This document shows positions 9,200 through 17,790 of a stretch of 51,142 nucleotides of DNA, piece by piece. The translations under genes were made by a program, and so were the position numbers. Under the pieces are notes generated by a model. The model saw nothing but the letters and a program-made list of their open reading frames with translations, made no database searches and was not told the origin of the DNA. Source of the DNA: Lutibacter sp. (GTDB lineage Bacteria > Bacteroidota > Bacteroidia > Flavobacteriales > Flavobacteriaceae); contig NVWM01000013.1 in assembly GCA_002733665.1 (NCBI GenBank), positions 1 to 51,142 of the forward strand, in the 5' to 3' direction. Each line of letters begins with the position of its first letter. Positions within the stretch are counted from its first letter, which is position 1.

Positions 9200-9487
9200 A
9201 TGAATAATTTTTCAATACAAAAAACACCAAAAAATATTGCGAAAGAGATTGCTGCAAAGTTTAAAAAACTCCGTAAACAAACAAAATTGTCTCGAAAAGA
9301 ACTTGCAGAACGTTCTGGAGTGTCAGAAAGTAGTATTAAACGTTTTGAGACTACAGGTCAAATAGCATTCGTGTCATTGTTGAAAGTAAGTCAAACTATT
9401 GAACGAATAGATGATTTTGGAACTATTTTCTTAATTAATGATAGTGAATCGGTAATAGATTTATTTAGTGATAAAATGAAACTATAA
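9200..9487 (+). CDS. hipB: XRE-family antitoxin/repressor (HipB-like)
   Basis: 95-residue DNA-binding protein. Residues about 15-60 form a Cro/C1-type helix-turn-helix with the recognition segment LSRKELAERSGVSESSIKRFE. It is expected to bind the two AGAC-N8-GTCT palindromes just upstream, repress the operon and neutralise the HipA-like kinase. The stop codon shares one base with the ATG of the next gene, the usual antitoxin-toxin coupling. It is the first gene after the tRNA-Val duplication and may be part of an acquired block. Confidence 0.87.
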   Translation: MNNFSIQKTPKNIAKEIAAKFKKLRKQTKLSRKELAERSGVSESSIKRFETTGQIAFVSLLKVSQTIERIDDFGTIFLINDSESVIDLFSDKMKL

Positions 9488-10722
9488 TGGCGTTGTTAGA
9501 AAGACTTACCGTTGTGTTAAATTTTGGAACCTCTTTAATAGAGGTTGGAGAAATAGTAACAAATAAAAAGAAATATTTTTTTAAGTATTACCCAAGTTTT
9601 TTAGAGCGGAAAATAGAAATATCACCATTTAAACTTCCTTTAAATTCAAAAATTCAAACTCCAAGTGAATTATTTTTTGATGGTCTTTTTGGCGTTTTTA
9701 ATGATAGTTTGCCAGATGGTTGGGGACGTTTATTGGTCGATAGGCATCTTTTAAAAAATGGCTTTCAATTGCAACAAATTACTGCCCTTGATAGGTTATC
9801 ACTTATTAACAATAATGGTTTAGGTGCATTAGAATATAAGCCTCAAGAAAAAATTGTATCAGAAAAATACAATAGCATTCAGTTAGATACTATTGCGCAA
9901 GACATGCAAGTTGTATTGCAAGGAGAAAGTAATGTTGTAATAGAAGAATTGTATAATTTAGGAGGATCTTCTGGTGGTGCAAGACCTAAAATAATGGTAG
10001 GTTATAATGAGAAAACAAATAAATTGGTACATGATAAGGCTATATTGCCCAAAGATTTTGAACATTGGATTATAAAATTTCCTTCTAGTACAGATATGCA
10101 AGACATTGCTCAAATAGAATATGCTTACTATTTAATGGCGGTAAATGCTGGTATTTCTATGAGCAAGTCACAACTTTTTAAAAGTAAAAAAAATGATTAT
10201 TTTTTTGGAACAAAAAGGTTTGATAGAGATAAAAATAACAAACTACATTTGCATTCTGCAAGTGGTTTATTACATGATAATTTTAGGTTGAGTAGTTTAG
10301 ATTATGGTCATATAATGAATGCGGCTTTTCAATTAGAAAATCACATAAATGGGTATGAAAAAGTTTTTCGTTTGGCATGTTTTAATATGCTTGCACACAA
10401 TAGAGATGATCATAGTAAAAATTTTGCATTTTTGATGAATGAAAAAGGCAAGTGGCAATTTGCACCTGCTTATGATCTTACTTTTTCATCATCATCACAT
10501 GGGCAACACAGTACAACTATTAATGGAGAAGGAGTAAATCCTACTCAAAAACATTTATTAAAATTGGCAGAAAATTTTGATATGAAAAATGCAGTACATA
10601 TTTTAGAAGAAGTAAAACAATCAATAAATAATTGGACTACTTTTGCTAATCAAGCAAATGTGAGTAAAGCATCAACAAAATTAATAGAGAAGGTCATAGA
10701 AAATCAATTAAAAAACTATTAA
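9487..10722 (+). CDS. hipA: HipA-family serine/threonine kinase toxin
   Basis: Full-length HipA-like kinase of 411 residues. The N-terminal lobe carries LFGVFNDSLPDGWGRLLVDR (about 67-86), the HipA N1 signature. A Gly/Ser loop LGGSSGGARPK (158-168) corresponds to the ATP-proximal, auto-phosphorylated loop. NRDDHSKN (305-312) is the catalytic loop, with Asp307 as the probable base, and APAYDL (326-331, Asp330) is the metal-binding motif. In E. coli the relative phosphorylates glutamyl-tRNA synthetase; the target here cannot be inferred. All catalytic residues appear intact. It is coupled to the HipB-like gene and followed by a long hairpin. Confidence 0.92.
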   Translation: MALLERLTVVLNFGTSLIEVGEIVTNKKKYFFKYYPSFLERKIEISPFKLPLNSKIQTPSELFFDGLFGVFNDSLPDGWGRLLVDRHLLKNGFQLQQITALDRLSLINNNGLGALEYKPQEKIVSEKYNSIQLDTIAQDMQVVLQGESNVVIEELYNLGGSSGGARPKIMVGYNEKTNKLVHDKAILPKDFEHWIIKFPSSTDMQDIAQIEYAYYLMAVNAGISMSKSQLFKSKKNDYFFGTKRFDRDKNNKLHLHSASGLLHDNFRLSSLDYGHIMNAAFQLENHINGYEKVFRLACFNMLAHNRDDHSKNFAFLMNEKGKWQFAPAYDLTFSSSSHGQHSTTINGEGVNPTQKHLLKLAENFDMKNAVHILEEVKQSINNWTTFANQANVSKASTKLIEKVIENQLKNY

Positions 10723-11046: not shown

Positions 11047-11140
11047 CAAAAAAAAGTCCTACCGAAGCAGGACTAAAGATTTTCATCTACGGCATATAGC
11101 CTTATTGTGATAAGATTAAAGATTAGAATAATTTTTTTCA
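11047..11140 (-). ncRNA. Predicted tracrRNA of the type II-C system
   Basis: Read on the minus strand, the anti-repeat (11104-11128) pairs with the CRISPR repeat. There are 15 consecutive pairs opposite GATTAAAGATTAGAA, a two-base mismatch bulge, then about eight more pairs (some G-U) with the repeat's GTTGTGGT end. Downstream come a nexus-like hairpin GGC-TATAT-GCC, a small AGAT-GAAA-ATCT hairpin, and an 8-bp terminator stem with a UUCG-type loop (11055-11074) running into T residues (11048-11054). This is the order expected of a tracrRNA. It is divergent from cas9 and 86 bases before its start. Confidence 0.9.
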
Positions 11141-11225: not shown

Positions 11226-14200
11226 ATGTCAAAAATTTTAGGATTAGATTTAGGTACCAACTCTATTGGTTGGGCTTTAATCGATGATGGGAATAAAAAA
11301 ATACTTGGAATGGGGAGTCGTATATTTCCTGAAGGAGTTGTTAATTTGGGAGAAGGCGAAGGACGTGAAACTTCAAAAAATGCTAGTAGAACTGAAGCAA
11401 GAGGAATTAGGCGTCAAATTTTTAGAAGGCGATTACGCAAACGTTATCTTCTACGAGAACTTGCTAAAAATGGTCTATGTCCCTTAGATTATACCTTAGT
11501 TAAAGTGTGGAATGAAAAAGAAATATTTAAAAACACTCAATTGCAAGAATGGTTTAAATTAAATCCTTATGACTTACGCTCAAAAGCAATTAAAGAAAAA
11601 ATTTCTTTAGTTGAATTAGGCAGAATTTTTTACCACATGATTCAGCGTAGAGGATTTCAAAGTAATAGCCGAAGTGCTGGAACTGACAATAACGAAAAGA
11701 GTGTCATTTTTAATGGAGATTCCAAAATCGGTAAAATTGGTATTGCTGAAACTGCTCAAAGTATAAAAAGCAACAAAACACTTGGGTCCTATCTCCATTC
11801 AATTTCTCCGAAAGAAAACACACCTTATTCAGGTGAATTAGAACGTATCAGAAACAGATACACAACTCGTCAGATGTACATTGATGAGTTTGAAACTATT
11901 TGGGAGTATCAAAAAAAGTATCATTCTGTATTAACACAAAATCTAAAAACAATCTTTGGAGGTAGAAAAAAAGATGGATATGCAGAAGATGGAGTGCTGT
12001 TTCATCAAAGACCTTTACGCTCTCAAAAACATTTAGTTGGGTATTGTGCTTTTGAGTCTAAAAAAACAAAATGTCCTATTAGTGCCATTCCAAACGAGTT
12101 AAGAAGAGTTTATGAATGGGTAAATAATTTAAAGTGTGATATTGCTGGGGAATCAGTAAAATTTACATCAGAAGAAAGAAAAAAAATTATCGATTTATTG
12201 CTATCTAAAGAGAAAGTAAGGTTTAAACAGATTAGAAAAACAATCAATAAATTAGAAAGTTACCATCAATTTAATTATAAAGATGATGATTATATAATAG
12301 GTACACATACTATTAGTAATTTATCTAATAAAAAATTTTTTGGAGAAAAATGGTTTGATTTTACAGAAAAGGAACAAGAAGATATTTGGCATATACTTTC
12401 CTTTTTTGAGGATAGAGAAAAACTAAAGCAATATGCTATTGAAAAATGGGGATTTGATGAGGAAAAAGCCACATTGATTTCTAAATTCAATTTAAAAGAT
12501 GAATATGCCAATTTAAGCAGAAAAGCAATTAGTAATATTTTGCCTTTTTTAAAATTAGGGTTTCAATACGATGTTGCTGTTGGTCTTGGCGGAGTTAAAA
12601 ATACTTTAGGTAGTAAATGGGAGGAAAACAAACAATTCATATTAGATAATGTCCCAGAAATAGTACGTTCTAATTTAAAAGGAGGTTATATCGAGCCTCT
12701 AAAAATGATGCTTAAAAATGAATTTCACCTTTCTGATAAACAGTTTGGTAAATTATATCATCATAGTAGTTCGATTAAAACGGTTAAATTATTAGATAAA
12801 TTACCAGTTAATTTAAAAGCAGATACAGAAATTCAAAGTATAAAAAATCCTGTTGTAATTACAGCACTATTTGAGATTAGAAAGTTGGTAAATGAACTAA
12901 TTGATACTTATGGAAAGTCTGATGCAATAAAAGTTGAATTGGCAAGAGACTTGAAAGCATCTAAAAAAAACAGGTATGAAACAAGAAGAAAACAACAGCA
13001 ATTAGAAAAACAAAATGATAGAGTAAAAGACGAATTAGAAAAATTAGGACAGCGAATAAATCATACAACTATTTTAAAATACAAGTTGTGGGAAGAATGT
13101 GATAAAAGATGTCCTTTTACAGGAAAAAATATTGAAGTAAATGAGTTGTTTTCTGGAGAAATACAAATAGAGCATATTTTCCCTTGGAGTAGGTCATTAA
13201 ACGATAGTTTTATGAACAAAACACTTTGTTTTGCTGATGAAAATAGAGCGAAAGGTAATTTGACTCCCTATGAATTCTATAGCAAACTAGGAGAAGAAAA
13301 ATGGGAAGAAATAAAATTACAAGCATTAAGTTGTTTTAAAACGAAACCTAATTATCCTAATGCTTATCATAAATTCAAACAATTTGTTAAGAAAAAGCAT
13401 GACGATGATTTTATAAGTCGTCAGTTAAATGATACTCGTTACATAAGTAAAGAAGCAAAAAATTATTTAAGTAAAATTTGTAATAATGTGCAAGTTGCTC
13501 CAGGACAAATGACTGCAACTTTACGCCATCATTGGGGTTTAAATTCTATTTTGAATAAAGATGATGATACTAAATCAAGAGATGACCATCGCCATCATGC
13601 AGTAGATGCTTTGGTAATGGCATGTTCTACAAGAAGTCATTTACAAGAATTAACAAAAAGAAATAGATATCAAAAAAATCATGAACTTAAAGATTTTGAG
13701 ATGCCTTGGCTATATTTTAGGCAAGATGCAGAAAAATCTGTTGAGCAAATATTAGTGTCTCATAAAAAAACAAATAATGTGTTAACGATAAGAACACATA
13801 AAACAAAGAAACATGGAATAGTATATAAAAATACAGGTGTTGCGGCTCGAGGGCAATTACATAAAGAAACTGTATATGGTAAAAGGACTGCTCCAGATGG
13901 TGTTGAAGCATTTCATGTACGAAAACCAATTGACAGTTTGACAACCAAAAAACAGATTGATAAAGTAGTTGATGAAACAATACGCTTCCTTATTTTAAAA
14001 AGGGTTGATGAATTGGGTGGCTTCATAAAAGGAAAGGTTCCTGATGGTGCTTTTTATGCTGTAGATGAAGGAGGTAATAAACTAGCACAATTATTTTTAC
14101 CAAATAAGAATGGGAATCCAGTGCCAATTAAAAAGGTACGTATGCGAGAAAATATTGGAGGAGCAGAACCATTAAAAGAGACTATAAATCAACATGTAAA

Positions 14201-14618
14201 CCCTCGTAATAATCATCATGTACTTATTTATAAAGATTTTGATGATAATTTGAGAGAGCAGGTAGTTACATTTTGGACTGCTGTTGAACGTAAAAGACAA
14301 AAACAATCCGTATTTCAATTGCCTGAAGATGGTAAAGAAGTTGTTACTACTTTACAAATTAATGATATATTTCTATTAGGATTAAAAAGTGATGATATTG
14401 ATTGGGAACAACCTAATTATGAAATACTGAAGAAGCATTTGTATAGAGTTCAGAAATTAACATCTAAAGATTATTTCTTTAGAAAGCATAATTCATCAAC
14501 TATTACAGATGATGATTATAAGCAAATAAGAGGTTTTGGAGAAGGGAAAACAGGTTGGCTTACCTTTAATCCAATAAAAGTCAAAATTTCAGTTTCGGGT
14601 AAAATTGAAAAAATATGA
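11226..14618 (+). CDS. cas9: CRISPR-associated endonuclease Cas9 (compact, type II-C)
   Basis: RNA-guided DNA nuclease of 1130 residues. RuvC-I is at the N-terminus (ILGLDLGTNSIGWALI, catalytic Asp8). An arginine-rich bridge helix lies at about 55-80 (RGIRRQIFRRRLRKR). RuvC-II has VELARDL with Glu571. The HNH domain has IQIEHIFPWSRS with His650 and following Asn residues, and RuvC-III has HHAVDA (His791, Asp794). All nuclease residues are present, so it should cut both strands. About 300 residues follow as wedge and PAM-interacting region. It is close in size to Neisseria II-C Cas9 (1082) and shorter than the roughly 1400-residue flavobacterial forms I know. No csn2 or cas4 is nearby. Its last codons overlap the HIRAN gene. 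Confidence 0.97.
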   Translation: MSKILGLDLGTNSIGWALIDDGNKKILGMGSRIFPEGVVNLGEGEGRETSKNASRTEARGIRRQIFRRRLRKRYLLRELAKNGLCPLDYTLVKVWNEKEIFKNTQLQEWFKLNPYDLRSKAIKEKISLVELGRIFYHMIQRRGFQSNSRSAGTDNNEKSVIFNGDSKIGKIGIAETAQSIKSNKTLGSYLHSISPKENTPYSGELERIRNRYTTRQMYIDEFETIWEYQKKYHSVLTQNLKTIFGGRKKDGYAEDGVLFHQRPLRSQKHLVGYCAFESKKTKCPISAIPNELRRVYEWVNNLKCDIAGESVKFTSEERKKIIDLLLSKEKVRFKQIRKTINKLESYHQFNYKDDDYIIGTHTISNLSNKKFFGEKWFDFTEKEQEDIWHILSFFEDREKLKQYAIEKWGFDEEKATLISKFNLKDEYANLSRKAISNILPFLKLGFQYDVAVGLGGVKNTLGSKWEENKQFILDNVPEIVRSNLKGGYIEPLKMMLKNEFHLSDKQFGKLYHHSSSIKTVKLLDKLPVNLKADTEIQSIKNPVVITALFEIRKLVNELIDTYGKSDAIKVELARDLKASKKNRYETRRKQQQLEKQNDRVKDELEKLGQRINHTTILKYKLWEECDKRCPFTGKNIEVNELFSGEIQIEHIFPWSRSLNDSFMNKTLCFADENRAKGNLTPYEFYSKLGEEKWEEIKLQALSCFKTKPNYPNAYHKFKQFVKKKHDDDFISRQLNDTRYISKEAKNYLSKICNNVQVAPGQMTATLRHHWGLNSILNKDDDTKSRDDHRHHAVDALVMACSTRSHLQELTKRNRYQKNHELKDFEMPWLYFRQDAEKSVEQILVSHKKTNNVLTIRTHKTKKHGIVYKNTGVAARGQLHKETVYGKRTAPDGVEAFHVRKPIDSLTTKKQIDKVVDETIRFLILKRVDELGGFIKGKVPDGAFYAVDEGGNKLAQLFLPNKNGNPVPIKKVRMRENIGGAEPLKETINQHVNPRNNHHVLIYKDFDDNLREQVVTFWTAVERKRQKQSVFQLPEDGKEVVTTLQINDIFLLGLKSDDIDWEQPNYEILKKHLYRVQKLTSKDYFFRKHNSSTITDDDYKQIRGFGEGKTGWLTFNPIKVKISVSGKIEKI

Positions 14619-15097
14619 AGCGCAAAGAGTTTTTAAAAAGTTTAGGAATAGGAGCATTAGGCTTAAGTGCTTTTTCTTTTCAAGAAATTATAGATAGAAG
14701 ACCTGTAATAATATATGATAATTATTTGCGAGGGACTTTTACATACAATTTAGAGACCATTTATAAGCAATTAAATGTTGGGCAAGAATTAATTTTACAG
14801 CGAGAAATAAACAATGAATACGACAAGTATGCTATTGCAGTTTTCTATAATAAGCATAAATTAGGATATATTGCTGCTTATGAAAATATTGTTTTAGCAA
14901 ACATGTTAGACGCAAATGTAAATTTAACTTCAGTAATAAGCTATTTAAATAAGGGTGAAAATAAAAATAGAGAAATTGCAATACAAGTTTTTTGTAATTT
15001 AATATCTCCAACACCTTTGCTAATTACTGAACTTGAAAAGCGTTCTGACGATGAAGATGACTTGTACAGAAAGAAAATCTATTTTGATAATAATTAA
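14615..15097 (+). CDS. HIRAN-domain protein coupled to cas9
   Basis: 160 residues; its ATG overlaps the cas9 TGA by four bases (ATGA), implying translational coupling. Residues about 36-127 fit a HIRAN domain: a glycine-preceded hydrophobic strand (NVGQELILQ), the hallmark REINNEYDKYAIAV (63-76), LGYIAAYENIVLANML (83-98) and a closing IAIQVF strand. HIRAN domains bind DNA ends or stalled forks in HLTF/Rad5-type proteins and occur alone in bacteria. Unexpectedly, residues 1-22 (KRKEFLKSLGIGALGLSAF) look like a Tat- or Sec-type signal or membrane anchor, with KRK in place of the twin Arg. A role in spacer uptake, DNA-end recognition or defence is my inference from position only. Confidence 0.82.
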   Translation: MKRKEFLKSLGIGALGLSAFSFQEIIDRRPVIIYDNYLRGTFTYNLETIYKQLNVGQELILQREINNEYDKYAIAVFYNKHKLGYIAAYENIVLANMLDANVNLTSVISYLNKGENKNREIAIQVFCNLISPTPLLITELEKRSDDEDDLYRKKIYFDNN

Positions 15098-15124: not shown

Positions 15125-16476
15125 TCTTAACCTTGATTAAAGATTAGAAAAAACGATATTTATTTCTAAAAAACTCTTTTGTACTATTCCGTTGTGGTTT
15201 GATTAAAGATTAGAAAAAACGATATTCTTAATAGAGCAGGGAAGAGGAATAACGGTGTTGTGGTTTGATTAAAGATTAGAAAAAACGATATTCTTGCGCA
15301 TCTTTTATATAAGCTTCTCTTGGTTGTGGTTTGATTAAAGATTAGAAAAAACGATATTAGCCTCTGCTCCAGGTTTAAGTAGTGCACTGTTGTGGTTTGA
15401 TTAAAGATTAGAAAAAACGATATTGGTTGATGATGGACAAATAACCAAACAAGGGTTGTGGTTTGATTAAAGATTAGAAAAAACGATATTCTTACCTGAA
15501 AAGATTAGAAACAGAGCATTGTTGTGGTTTGATTAAAGATTAGAAAAAACGATATTTTCCGCAGGAAAAAACAAGCATATAGATAGTTGTGGTTTGATTA
15601 AAGATTAGAAAAAACGATATTAAAGCAACAAATTACGCCAAAGCAAAAACAGTTGTGGTTTGATTAAAGATTAGAAAAAACGATATTTCGTAAAGCACAA
15701 TAATAAAATGACAATAAGTTGTGGTTTGATTAAAGATTAGAAAAAACGATATTATGCGAATTAGATAGATACCCAGAGTTCCGTTGTGGTTTGATTAAAG
15801 ATTAGAAAAAACGATATTCAAGGAACTGGTATTATAGCCTCTGATTTGTTGTGGTTTGATTAAAGATTAGAAAAAACGATATTCTCCTTGAAACATACCA
15901 TTCCACATATATGTTGTGGTTTGATTAAAGATTAGAAAAAACGATATTTCAAAAGTTGTTGGATGTATTGTAACACATGTTGTGGTTTGATTAAAGATTA
16001 GAAAAAACGATATTCTTTATCTGTTCCAACAATAATATCTTCTTGTTGTGGTTTGATTAAAGATTAGAAAAAACGATATTTTATTAGGAGCATCAACTTA
16101 CGTGAAGTAAGTTGTGGTTTGATTAAAGATTAGAAAAAACGATATTACCATCTGCCCTAATTGTTCGCATACACGTGTTGTGGTTTGATTAAAGATTAGA
16201 AAAAACGATATTATTGGGTCCTGGAGAATGCTGTTTTGTATGGTTGTGGTTTGATTAAAGATTAGAAAAAACGATATTTATATAGACTGCTTCTTTTACA
16301 TCGTATTTGTTGTGGTTTGATTAAAGATTAGAAAAAACGATATTACTACAGAACCTAATAATGTAAAGGAGATTGTTGTGGTTTGATTAAAGATTAGAAA
16401 AAACGATATTATGGTTTTCCTTTTACATAGTCTACCAATTGTTGTGGTTTGATTAAAGATTAGAAAAAACGATATT
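15125..16476 (+). CRISPR. CRISPR array: 21 repeats, 20 spacers
   Basis: There are twenty apparently identical 36-base repeats (first at 15191, last at 16441; begin GTTGTGGTTTG, middle GATTAAAGATTAG, end AACGATATT) plus one degenerate repeat at 15125-15160 whose first nine or so bases have decayed. Spacers are 30 bases, except four of 29 (those before 15586, 15783, 15848 and 15913). All spacers differ; none obviously matches this window. Orientation is set by the tracrRNA: the repeat strand shown is the crRNA strand. The degenerate repeat is therefore at the 5' end of transcription, and the newest spacers are probably at the 16476 side, next to cas2. Confidence 0.98.
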
Positions 16477-16585: not shown

Positions 16586-16915
16586 TCAAAATAATTCTAA
16601 CTGCAAAGGTGGCGGTTCCTTTGGTGTCTCAACTCTACCCCAAAAGTTCATAATATTACCATATTGTTTATCAGTAATTCTTAGTACACTTACCTTTCCT
16701 AATGGTGGCAACAAGTGTTTAATTCTTTTTTCATGAGCATCAGCACTTTCACTACTTGCACAATGCCTCATATACACAGAGTACTGCATCATTGTAAACC
16801 CATTTTTTAATAGGTTTTTACGAAATTGTTGAGCATTTCGTCTATCTTTTTTTGTTTCAGTTGGTAAATCAAAAAATACAAATAACCACATAATACGATA
16901 ACCGTTTAATTCCAT
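16586..16915 (-). CDS. cas2: CRISPR-associated endonuclease Cas2
   Basis: Adaptation-complex subunit that bridges two Cas1 dimers during spacer integration. The start MELNGYRIMWLFVFFDLPTETKKDRR is typical of type II Cas2, with the conserved Asp at the end of the first beta strand (FFDLP). QYSVYMRHC follows in the ferredoxin-like fold. I use the Met at 16915 (109 residues), which overlaps the cas1 end by 10 bases; an upstream Met at 16957 would add 14 residues lacking family similarity. It is transcribed towards the array. Confidence 0.93.
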   Translation of the reverse strand: MELNGYRIMWLFVFFDLPTETKKDRRNAQQFRKNLLKNGFTMMQYSVYMRHCASSESADAHEKRIKHLLPPLGKVSVLRITDKQYGNIMNFWGRVETPKEPPPLQLELF

Positions 16916-17790
16916 AATTTGGGATAAATTATTTTCCTTGTTTTGCCCATAAAACACTGCTGTAAACTACTTGTGGTTCTAGATATGCCAACCATTAAAG
17001 GGCTTTTGTATCCATCAAAATACACAGTTTCTGTAAGTACGTTTAATAATTCTGTTTTAATCGGTGTGATTAAATCCTGCTCATCATATCGTTGCATAAT
17101 TTCAATTACTTTAGCATCTACTAATGGTCTAAAGGGTTCCATAATATCATCAGCCAAACAAAAGGCATTGTATTTATTATGATGATGAATACCAAGAGTA
17201 GTTAATAAACCACTTCCAGATAATGCTCTTGCCACAGCAGCTCTCAAAACAATGTACCCATAGTTTAAAAATAAGTTTGGATATTTACCATAGCGTTCTC
17301 GTTTAAAATTAAAATCAAATAAATGCTTCCAATAATAGGCGGCTGCAACACCCTCTCTATTATCAGTATCACCACTTAAAACTTTTGAAGCGTAATAATC
17401 CATAGGGTTATTTTCGCAGTTCATTCTGTTCAATAATTCAGATTGATTTTCAATTTTTGACTTAACAATTTGTTGCCATAATTGCTTTTTTAAAGGTTCA
17501 GAAGCGTTAATTTGATTTCTAAATAATTCTTGTTGAATGTGGTGACTGTCTAAATTCAATAACATACTTTGTGGCATGTGCTTATTATCGCAAAAAATGA
17601 CACTAGTATTATTTGATGATAATTTTGATAAAGCAGGTATGGAAATATAAGACTCTTGATGCTCAATGACAATAAATCCAATATCTTCTATTGGCACTGT
17701 TGTTTCTCTTTCAGAAGTTTTTATAACTAGTTGCTCATATTTAGTAGTTAATGAGCATTTATTTCCAAAGAATAAAGTTCTTTTTATCAT
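16906..17790 (-). CDS. cas1: CRISPR-associated endonuclease Cas1 (type II)
   Basis: Spacer integrase, 294 residues. The beta-rich N-terminal domain begins MIKRTLFFGNKCSL. The catalytic triad is visible as Glu146 (DNREG), a His cluster at 202-204 (GIHHHN) and Glu218 (LADDIMEPF). The sequence is of the type II-C subgroup. It is the first gene of a cas1-cas2 operon on the strand opposite cas9, starting 134 bases from the divergent 17925 gene. Its separation from cas9 by the array is unlike the usual cas9-cas1-cas2-array order. Confidence 0.96.
   Translation of the reverse strand: MIKRTLFFGNKCSLTTKYEQLVIKTSERETTVPIEDIGFIVIEHQESYISIPALSKLSSNNTSVIFCDNKHMPQSMLLNLDSHHIQQELFRNQINASEPLKKQLWQQIVKSKIENQSELLNRMNCENNPMDYYASKVLSGDTDNREGVAAAYYWKHLFDFNFKRERYGKYPNLFLNYGYIVLRAAVARALSGSGLLTTLGIHHHNKYNAFCLADDIMEPFRPLVDAKVIEIMQRYDEQDLITPIKTELLNVLTETVYFDGYKSPLMVGISRTTSSLQQCFMGKTRKIIYPKLWN

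What the first reader, a model, noticed from the sequence alone, without database searches (positions are those of the whole stretch)
14615..15097. HIRAN-domain gene translationally coupled to cas9
The ATG of a HIRAN-domain gene overlaps the cas9 stop (ATGA), and the gene lies between cas9 and the array, in the position normally held by adaptation genes. HIRAN domains are known in HLTF/Rad5 proteins for binding DNA ends or fork DNA. I know of no described role in type II CRISPR. An end-binding helper for spacer capture or for processing Cas9 breaks is possible. The signal-like N-terminus is at odds with a cytosolic role, and could instead anchor the complex at the membrane where phage DNA enters. 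This is the best candidate for an undescribed component.
Basis: partly seen in the sequence, partly recalled or inferred. Interest (0 to 1): 0.8.

Follow-up and report, generated by a model that had tools for sequence, protein, structure and literature searches.

The report
DNA-end-binding partner gene of Cas9
Beside the gene for the DNA-cutting enzyme Cas9, some bacteria of the phylum Bacteroidota carry a small extra gene whose product belongs to a protein family that in humans holds on to cut DNA ends, and it likely helps the CRISPR system catch the ends that Cas9 makes.

Summary
Observation confirmed; the linkage is real. The 160-aa HIRAN gene overlaps the cas9 stop (ATGA). A genome scan for its family, blind to gene context, gave 37 loci: in 30 the gene is next to cas9 on the same strand, one more is tied to cas9 by a 55-bp contig overlap. 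Three gene orders occur. Four copies are solo; two loci are cut off. The family has its own signature, the HIRAN fold and most, not all, residues of human HLTF's end-binding pocket, and is under purifying selection. In tree shape it follows Cas1, not Cas9, though distance tests showed neither. It is rare: 2 of 83 cas9-bearing genomes drawn from the window's family. Best reading, inferred: a Cas9-indifferent 3'-end binder that hands ends from Cas9 cuts to Cas1-Cas2, a role like that proposed for Csn2 in type II-A. Passages read show that HLTF's isolated HIRAN domain binds the 3' end freed in Cas9 cleavage complexes. The N-terminus is Tat-like without the twin arginine; its role is open. Some likely prior surveys could not be read.

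The parts
14615..15097 (+). HIRAN-domain accessory gene (160 aa): Tat-like N-terminus (1-20), HIRAN barrel with family signature IYDNY (33-37), C-terminal RxDDxxDxYR motif (143-152)
   Evidence: ORF; PF08797; family conservation; fold
14615..14618 (+). ATGA overlap of the cas9 stop and the HIRAN start
   Evidence: sequence; the same -4 overlap in L004, L005, L006, L027
11226..14618 (+). cas9, type II-C, 1130 aa
   Evidence: TIGR01865 629.9 bits, HNH_4 and RuvC_III
15191..16476 (.). CRISPR array, 20 exact 36-nt repeats, 29-30 nt spacers, 93 nt after the HIRAN stop; a degenerate repeat-like stretch lies just upstream near 15132-15161
   Evidence: upstream stretch by eye
16586..16957 (-). cas2
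   Evidence: PF09827
16906..17790 (-). cas1
   Evidence: PF01867; PADLOC Cas1_II
11114..11128 (.). 15-nt exact match to the repeat upstream of cas9, a candidate anti-repeat of a tracrRNA (not tested further)

Best explanation
This is a conserved accessory gene of Bacteroidota type II-C CRISPR-Cas loci, and its HIRAN-domain protein is predicted to bind the free 3' DNA ends that Cas9 cutting exposes and would likely hand them to Cas1-Cas2 for spacer capture. Shown here: the linkage to cas9, the HIRAN fold (as a predicted model) and most pocket residues, purifying selection, and a tree shape that agrees with Cas1 and not with Cas9. Inferred: binding of 3' ends, by homology to human HLTF; action on Cas9's product rather than on Cas9's surface, because the gene is kept when Cas9 is swapped; and delivery to Cas1-Cas2, by analogy to the end-binding protein Csn2 of type II-A. 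Not explained: the conserved Tat-like N-terminus, which may tether the protein to the membrane or bind a partner.
Against: No binding or adaptation assay. Yeast Rad5's HIRAN binds ssDNA without 3'-OH specificity (PMC7804152 passages). HLTF N90 has no conserved counterpart, nor, by my hand alignment, R71. Adjacency is constant to cas9, not to cas1. Distance (Mantel) tests on the same 23 loci were not significant for either gene. HIRAN presence is about as scattered on the Cas1 tree (14 changes) as on the Cas9 tree (15). Agreement with Cas1 may only reflect descent with the host while Cas9 is exchanged. The HIRAN frame is broken in 2 of the 37 loci (L037, L038). Four solo copies exist; the held genome of C. 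bilenii (L007) has no cas9 hit, yet its copy and that of C. gingivalis are 80% identical with synonymous sites saturated. Riemerella anatipestifer II-C acquires spacers with three cas genes (PMC6008519 passages).
Confidence: 0.4

Rival explanations
1. Interference helper (a pro-CRISPR factor): it binds the freed 3' non-target strand in the Cas9 post-cleavage complex and speeds Cas9 release or blocks repair of the invader, with no role in spacer capture.
For: Adjacency and same strand as cas9 in all three layouts; HLTF HIRAN acts on exactly this end (PMC11237066 passages); PcrIIC1 is a precedent for a II-C accessory that boosts Cas9 (PMC13153721 passages); Csn2 inhibits NHEJ (PMC5727150 abstract).
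Against: No motor domain; in HLTF the isolated HIRAN domain inhibited Cas9 removal. The HIRAN tree does not agree with the Cas9 tree.
Confidence: 0.27
2. Membrane-placed DNA-end sentinel: the Tat-like N-terminus holds the protein at the inner membrane, where it meets ends of entering phage DNA.
For: N-terminal residues 1-20 are about as conserved (2.90 bits) as HIRAN residues 61-99 (3.12), against 1.55 in the linker 21-30; a distant HIRAN protein has a Tat-type motif with two arginines; TatC is in the host genome.
Against: The second arginine is missing (position 4 mostly S, K, N, L); the hydrophobic stretch is short (by eye); the first 17 residues are modelled with low confidence, which fits other roles too.
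Confidence: 0.12
3. Passenger: the slot beside cas9 takes mobile cargo (toxin-antitoxin pairs, transposase-like genes), and HIRAN is one such guest without CRISPR function.
For: 14-15 presence changes on the Cas9 and Cas1 trees; a ParDE-like pair sits in the same slot in L109, whose Cas9 is sister to that of L005; rare overall (2 of 83 cas9 genomes); frame broken in L037 and L038.
Against: 31 of 37 family members found without regard to context are at cas9; the order differs but the strand does not; purifying selection also where Cas9 was exchanged.
Confidence: 0.11
4. Brake: it covers ends at self-targeted breaks and so limits damage by, or adaptation from, the host's own DNA.
For: End binding would fit; sporadic presence fits an optional safeguard.
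Against: Nothing here speaks for it directly.
Confidence: 0.1

Closest known systems
HIRAN domain of human HLTF (PDB 4s0n, 4xzf, 5bnh)
   Different: Stand-alone 160 aa, no SNF2 motor or RING; N90 (and by hand alignment R71) not kept; own IYDNY strand, N-terminal motif and C-terminal RADDxxDxYR
Csn2 (type II-A) and Cas4 (type II-B)
   Same: Fourth gene of a type II locus; Csn2 is proposed to act on DNA ends in adaptation
   Different: Unrelated by sequence: Pfam finds only HIRAN; sporadic, not subtype-defining; found beside unrelated Cas9s
PcrIIC1, pro-CRISPR factor of II-C CbCas9
   Same: Accessory gene in some II-C loci
   Different: PIN-domain protein that binds the Cas9 C-terminal helix (PMC13153721 passages); here HIRAN, no PIN match, and no agreement with the Cas9 tree
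lp_0118 (PDB 3k2y) and PADLOC candidate PDC-M03B
   Different: lp_0118 is named uncharacterized; PDC-M03B models are longer (232-255), with the match in their C-terminal half; no cas9 link examined here
HipN and HipL HIRAN proteins
   Same: Prokaryotic HIRAN proposed to sense DNA ends of invaders (PMC8262856 passages)
   Different: Fused to HipS-like or kinase domains

Membership tests
HIRAN domain (PF08797) | Profile score over the curated cut-off | tested here: met
   45.1 bits against 24.7
HIRAN domain (PF08797) | Beta-barrel fold of HLTF HIRAN | tested here: met
HIRAN domain (PF08797) | Residues of the 3'-end pocket | tested here: inconclusive
   D94, N91, Y93 and position 110 equivalents kept; N90 not, R71 not by hand alignment; numbering counted with anchors
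HIRAN domain (PF08797) | Binding of free 3' ends | not testable with these tools
   needs a binding assay
Type II-C CRISPR-Cas | cas9, cas1, cas2, no csn2 or cas4 | tested here: met
   between cas9 and cas1 the only ORFs of 80 aa or more are HIRAN and cas2
Type II-C CRISPR-Cas | tracrRNA | tested here: inconclusive
   15-nt repeat match at 11114-11128 upstream of cas9
Csn2 / Cas4 | Sequence family | tested here: not met
   Pfam gives HIRAN only, NCBIfam one weak TatB_1 hit below its cut-off, PADLOC PDC-M03B only
PcrIIC1 | PIN domain | tested here: not met
   no PIN match in Pfam at E <= 1
Tat signal peptide | Twin arginine before FLK | tested here: not met
   R3 in 72 of 74, but position 4 is S 35, K 13, N 7, L 5 of 74 as the four commonest; window has R-K

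The most novel reading that the evidence does not exclude
The long-missing fourth gene of type II-C: a membrane-tethered, Cas9-indifferent DNA-end catcher, unrelated to Csn2 and Cas4, that feeds ends from Cas9 cuts and from entering phage DNA into Cas1-Cas2, and that reinvents in bacteria the HIRAN-on-Cas9-break encounter seen with human HLTF.
Probability: 0.17. Interest if true: 0.9.

Novelty: new variant of a known kind. Interest (0 to 1): 0.72.

Why it matters
How type II-C systems, described as having only three cas genes, choose and process DNA for new spacers is little known. A conserved fourth gene with a DNA-end-binding fold would make that question directly testable. Its persistence beside unrelated Cas9s suggests a portable helper that need not be matched to one Cas9. 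If it works on Cas9 breaks as HLTF's HIRAN does, it could also serve to steer what happens to Cas9-cut ends.

Tried and rejected
Phage or plasmid origin: no relative in viral contigs with the protein or the alignment, none in phage records, one distant plasmid hit next to a manganese catalase gene. Mantel tests on tree distances gave no signal (HIRAN-Cas9 0.12, p 0.16; HIRAN-Cas1 -0.08, p 0.75; Cas9-Cas1 0.16, p 0.10); the topological test was made after these, so it is a second look, and the distance test does not support it. A first Mantel run kept only 10 loci because of a parsing slip and is dropped. HIRAN presence on the Cas1 tree versus the Cas9 tree did not separate the two ideas (14 and 15 changes; forced by starred branches 8 and 14). 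REP-transposase-like genes are not clearly enriched in HIRAN loci (8 of 31 against 5 of 57, Fisher p 0.056). A true Tat signal was rejected on the missing second arginine. PcrIIC1 identity was rejected (PIN, not HIRAN). Promoter-like sites around the gene were no more than chance (4 found, 4.6 expected).

Literature: seven searches that paired HIRAN or II-C accessory words with Cas9 or CRISPR terms. Searches found no paper. Searches listed all their papers (23 and 30). Searches listed only the top 20 of 4,093, 30 of 5,052 and 20 of 152, and 7 and 8 seem mostly to catch the name Hirano. None of the titles and abstract starts listed describes a bacterial HIRAN-cas9 link; of these papers I read passages of a few only. 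The main texts of PMC10910872 and PMC13153721 hold the word HIRAN 0 times; PMC12669027 holds 'hiran' twice, and the passage shown is the author name Hirano. No supplement was read. Zhang et al. 2024 (Nature), Chylinski 2014, a 2018 PNAS paper and the HLTF paper PMC4475461 are not held. Prior listing in these is possible.

Full report
Observation. The gene at 14615-15097 (+) encodes 160 aa and shares ATGA with the cas9 stop. It scores 45.1 bits to Pfam HIRAN, cut-off 24.7, and is the only HIRAN match in the held genome. Cas9 is full length (TIGR01865, 629.9 bits). The array has 20 exact repeats, starting 93 nt after the HIRAN stop. cas2 and cas1 lie beyond it on the opposite strand.

The family. 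A search of 5.8 billion proteins gave 40 proteins at E <= 1e-3 among 70 candidates, the window's own included, all 148-168 aa long. Their alignment shows a shared N-terminus, MKRSDFLKSLGLGAxGL by majority. In a 75-sequence set the strand IYDNY is almost invariant (Y34 75, D35 74, N36 75, Y37 73 of 75), and the C-terminus keeps a RADDxxDxYR motif (D149 73, Y151 74, R152 74 of 74). Many of the other HIRAN proteins fetched have VAGF- or VAGT-like strands there instead.

Linkage. A scan of 84,980 species genomes with the alignment, by two conserved peptide patterns and blind to context, returned 37 loci. In 29, cas9 is next to the gene on the same strand, gap at most 332 nt; L011 adds a cas9 end at 1-696 with HIRAN following. 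L026 stops 306 nt after HIRAN at a contig end that shares exactly 55 bp with the start of a contig of the same genome whose cas9 match begins at base 124. That makes 31 of 37. L010 has the array but its cas9 side is cut off; L035 is cut off too. Four are solo: L007, L014, L019, L025. L019 is syntenic upstream with L015, but has no cas genes and a DDE transposase beside it, so it looks like a remnant. Two of the four solo genomes (L014, L025) have cas9 elsewhere. As a control, 25 loci of other HIRAN matches were fetched with up to 1.5-kb flanks (8 more matches were not fetched); 2 of the 25 had cas9 in reach (L079, L088), and in L088 the genes are divergent.

Layouts. (A) cas9-HIRAN, then array, cas2-cas1 on the opposite strand: window, L004, L006, L008; L027 has this gene order but no array was found between; L005 is cut off after HIRAN. 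(B) cas9-HIRAN-cas1-cas2: L002, L003, L009, L011, L012, L016, L017, L018, L020, L023; in L003, L011, L016 and L018 other genes lie between HIRAN and cas1. (C) HIRAN-cas9-cas1-cas2: 15 loci, among them L030 with cas1-cas2 reversed and L021 and L028 cut off within cas9. In L037 and L038 the HIRAN frame is broken. By NCBI names the carriers span at least six families: Flavobacteriaceae, Weeksellaceae, Sphingobacteriaceae, Cyclobacteriaceae, Porphyromonadaceae, Crocinitomicaceae.

How common. Among 397 genomes drawn from the window's family, 8 matched the alignment, only two at full length (G000 and G088; the HIRAN protein of G088 is identical to that of L006); 83 had cas9 over the cut-off. Among 395 genomes of the phylum, 28 matched, all but the window at E 1e-23 or weaker; 65 had cas9 over the cut-off. 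So the family mostly implies cas9, but cas9 rarely implies the family. On a tree of 82 Cas9s, the 26 with HIRAN need 14 changes, 13 forced by starred branches; the 56 without come from the best-scoring loci of two capped searches, so the share of carriers there means nothing. Near relatives differ: L048 and L055 go from cas9 to the array, L065 lacks HIRAN, and L109 has a ParDE-like pair in that slot.

Cas9 or Cas1. For 23 loci with all three genes, the HIRAN tree agrees with Cas1 (6 shared splits of 20; quartets 0.536, null 0.333, p 0.002, the least that 500 shuffles allow) and not with Cas9 (1 split; 0.345, p 0.30); Cas1 against Cas9 gives 3 splits and 0.418, p 0.010. The plainest case is L020 and L023, two Pedobacter glucosidilyticus records. 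This matches the in-place Cas9 exchange reported for Flavobacteriales II-C (PMC12669027, passages). Distance correlations over the same loci were not significant, and presence on the two trees needs similar numbers of changes, so the tie to Cas1 is supported by one of three tests. Pairwise dN/dS was 0.08, 0.03, 0.22, 0.13 and 0.11 for five of eight pairs (0.22 is L015 against the solo L019); three pairs had saturated synonymous sites.

Mechanism. PMC11237066 (passages) reports that HLTF needs its HIRAN domain and the 3' end freed by the RuvC cut to remove Cas9, and that the isolated domain binds best where that end is exposed. PMC7804152 (passages) warns that Rad5's HIRAN lacks 3'-OH specificity. 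Type II-C is described as having three cas genes, with Csn2 and Cas4 essential for adaptation in II-A and II-B (PMC6008519, passages); Csn2 prefers DNA ends (PMC6620040, passages). From adjacency to cas9, indifference to the Cas9 lineage, and cas1 in all 28 cas9 loci not cut short, I infer a 3'-end binder acting between Cas9 cutting and Cas1-Cas2 capture. The binding and the hand-over are untested.

N-terminus. Residues 1-20 average 2.90 bits against 3.12 for residues 61-99 and 1.55 for the linker 21-30; R3 (72 of 74), F6 (74 of 74) and G11 (71 of 75) stand out. A cleaved signal is rarely so conserved (recalled, not tested). The twin arginine of Tat is absent, though a distant HIRAN protein with no cas genes annotated around it has one and TatC is in this genome. 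A partner-binding or membrane-touching segment that came from a Tat signal is my guess.

Verdict. The linkage is firm, the biochemical role inferred. PcrIIC1 shows that II-C accessories exist, so this is a new variant of a known kind. Whether earlier surveys list it could not be fully checked.

Noticed in passing
L003, L011, L013, L015, L016, L022, L038 (HIRAN loci); L159, L191 (no HIRAN): A REP-associated tyrosine-transposase-like gene lies just before cas1 on the same strand (NCBIfam REP_Tyr_transpos, below its cut-off, in the three tested: L015, L016, L022).
   Followed up: partly
L109 4926-5433: ParD/ParE-like pair between cas9 and the array, in the slot that holds HIRAN in L005, whose Cas9 is sister (ParD just under its cut-off). 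L008 has two small ORFs at 12662-13164 between array and cas2 that look similar (not profiled).
   Followed up: partly
L079 965-2235 (G482; also L190): A HIRAN gene of another subfamily (246 aa, VAGF type) with a nucleotidyltransferase-like gene between cas9 and cas1, perhaps a second recruitment.
   Followed up: partly
L020 and L023: Same species, near-identical HIRAN and Cas1, unrelated Cas9: in-place Cas9 exchange.
   Followed up: yes
L015 13406-14017, L016 8492-9079: PRiA4_ORF3-family gene (Pfam for L015; its homologue in L016) before the transposase-like gene and cas1; a related hit lies near cas9 in L155.
   Followed up: no
window 9200-10722: HTH gene and HipA-like kinase gene (a hipBA-like pair) upstream of cas9.
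   Followed up: no
L130 7995-8399: Pelagibacterium plasmid HIRAN protein with a Tat-type motif (SRRLFLA), next to a manganese catalase gene.
   Followed up: partly
L007 2410-6120: In Capnocytophaga bilenii a DpdF/RecQ-like helicase with DUF559 is the third gene upstream of the solo HIRAN gene.
   Followed up: no
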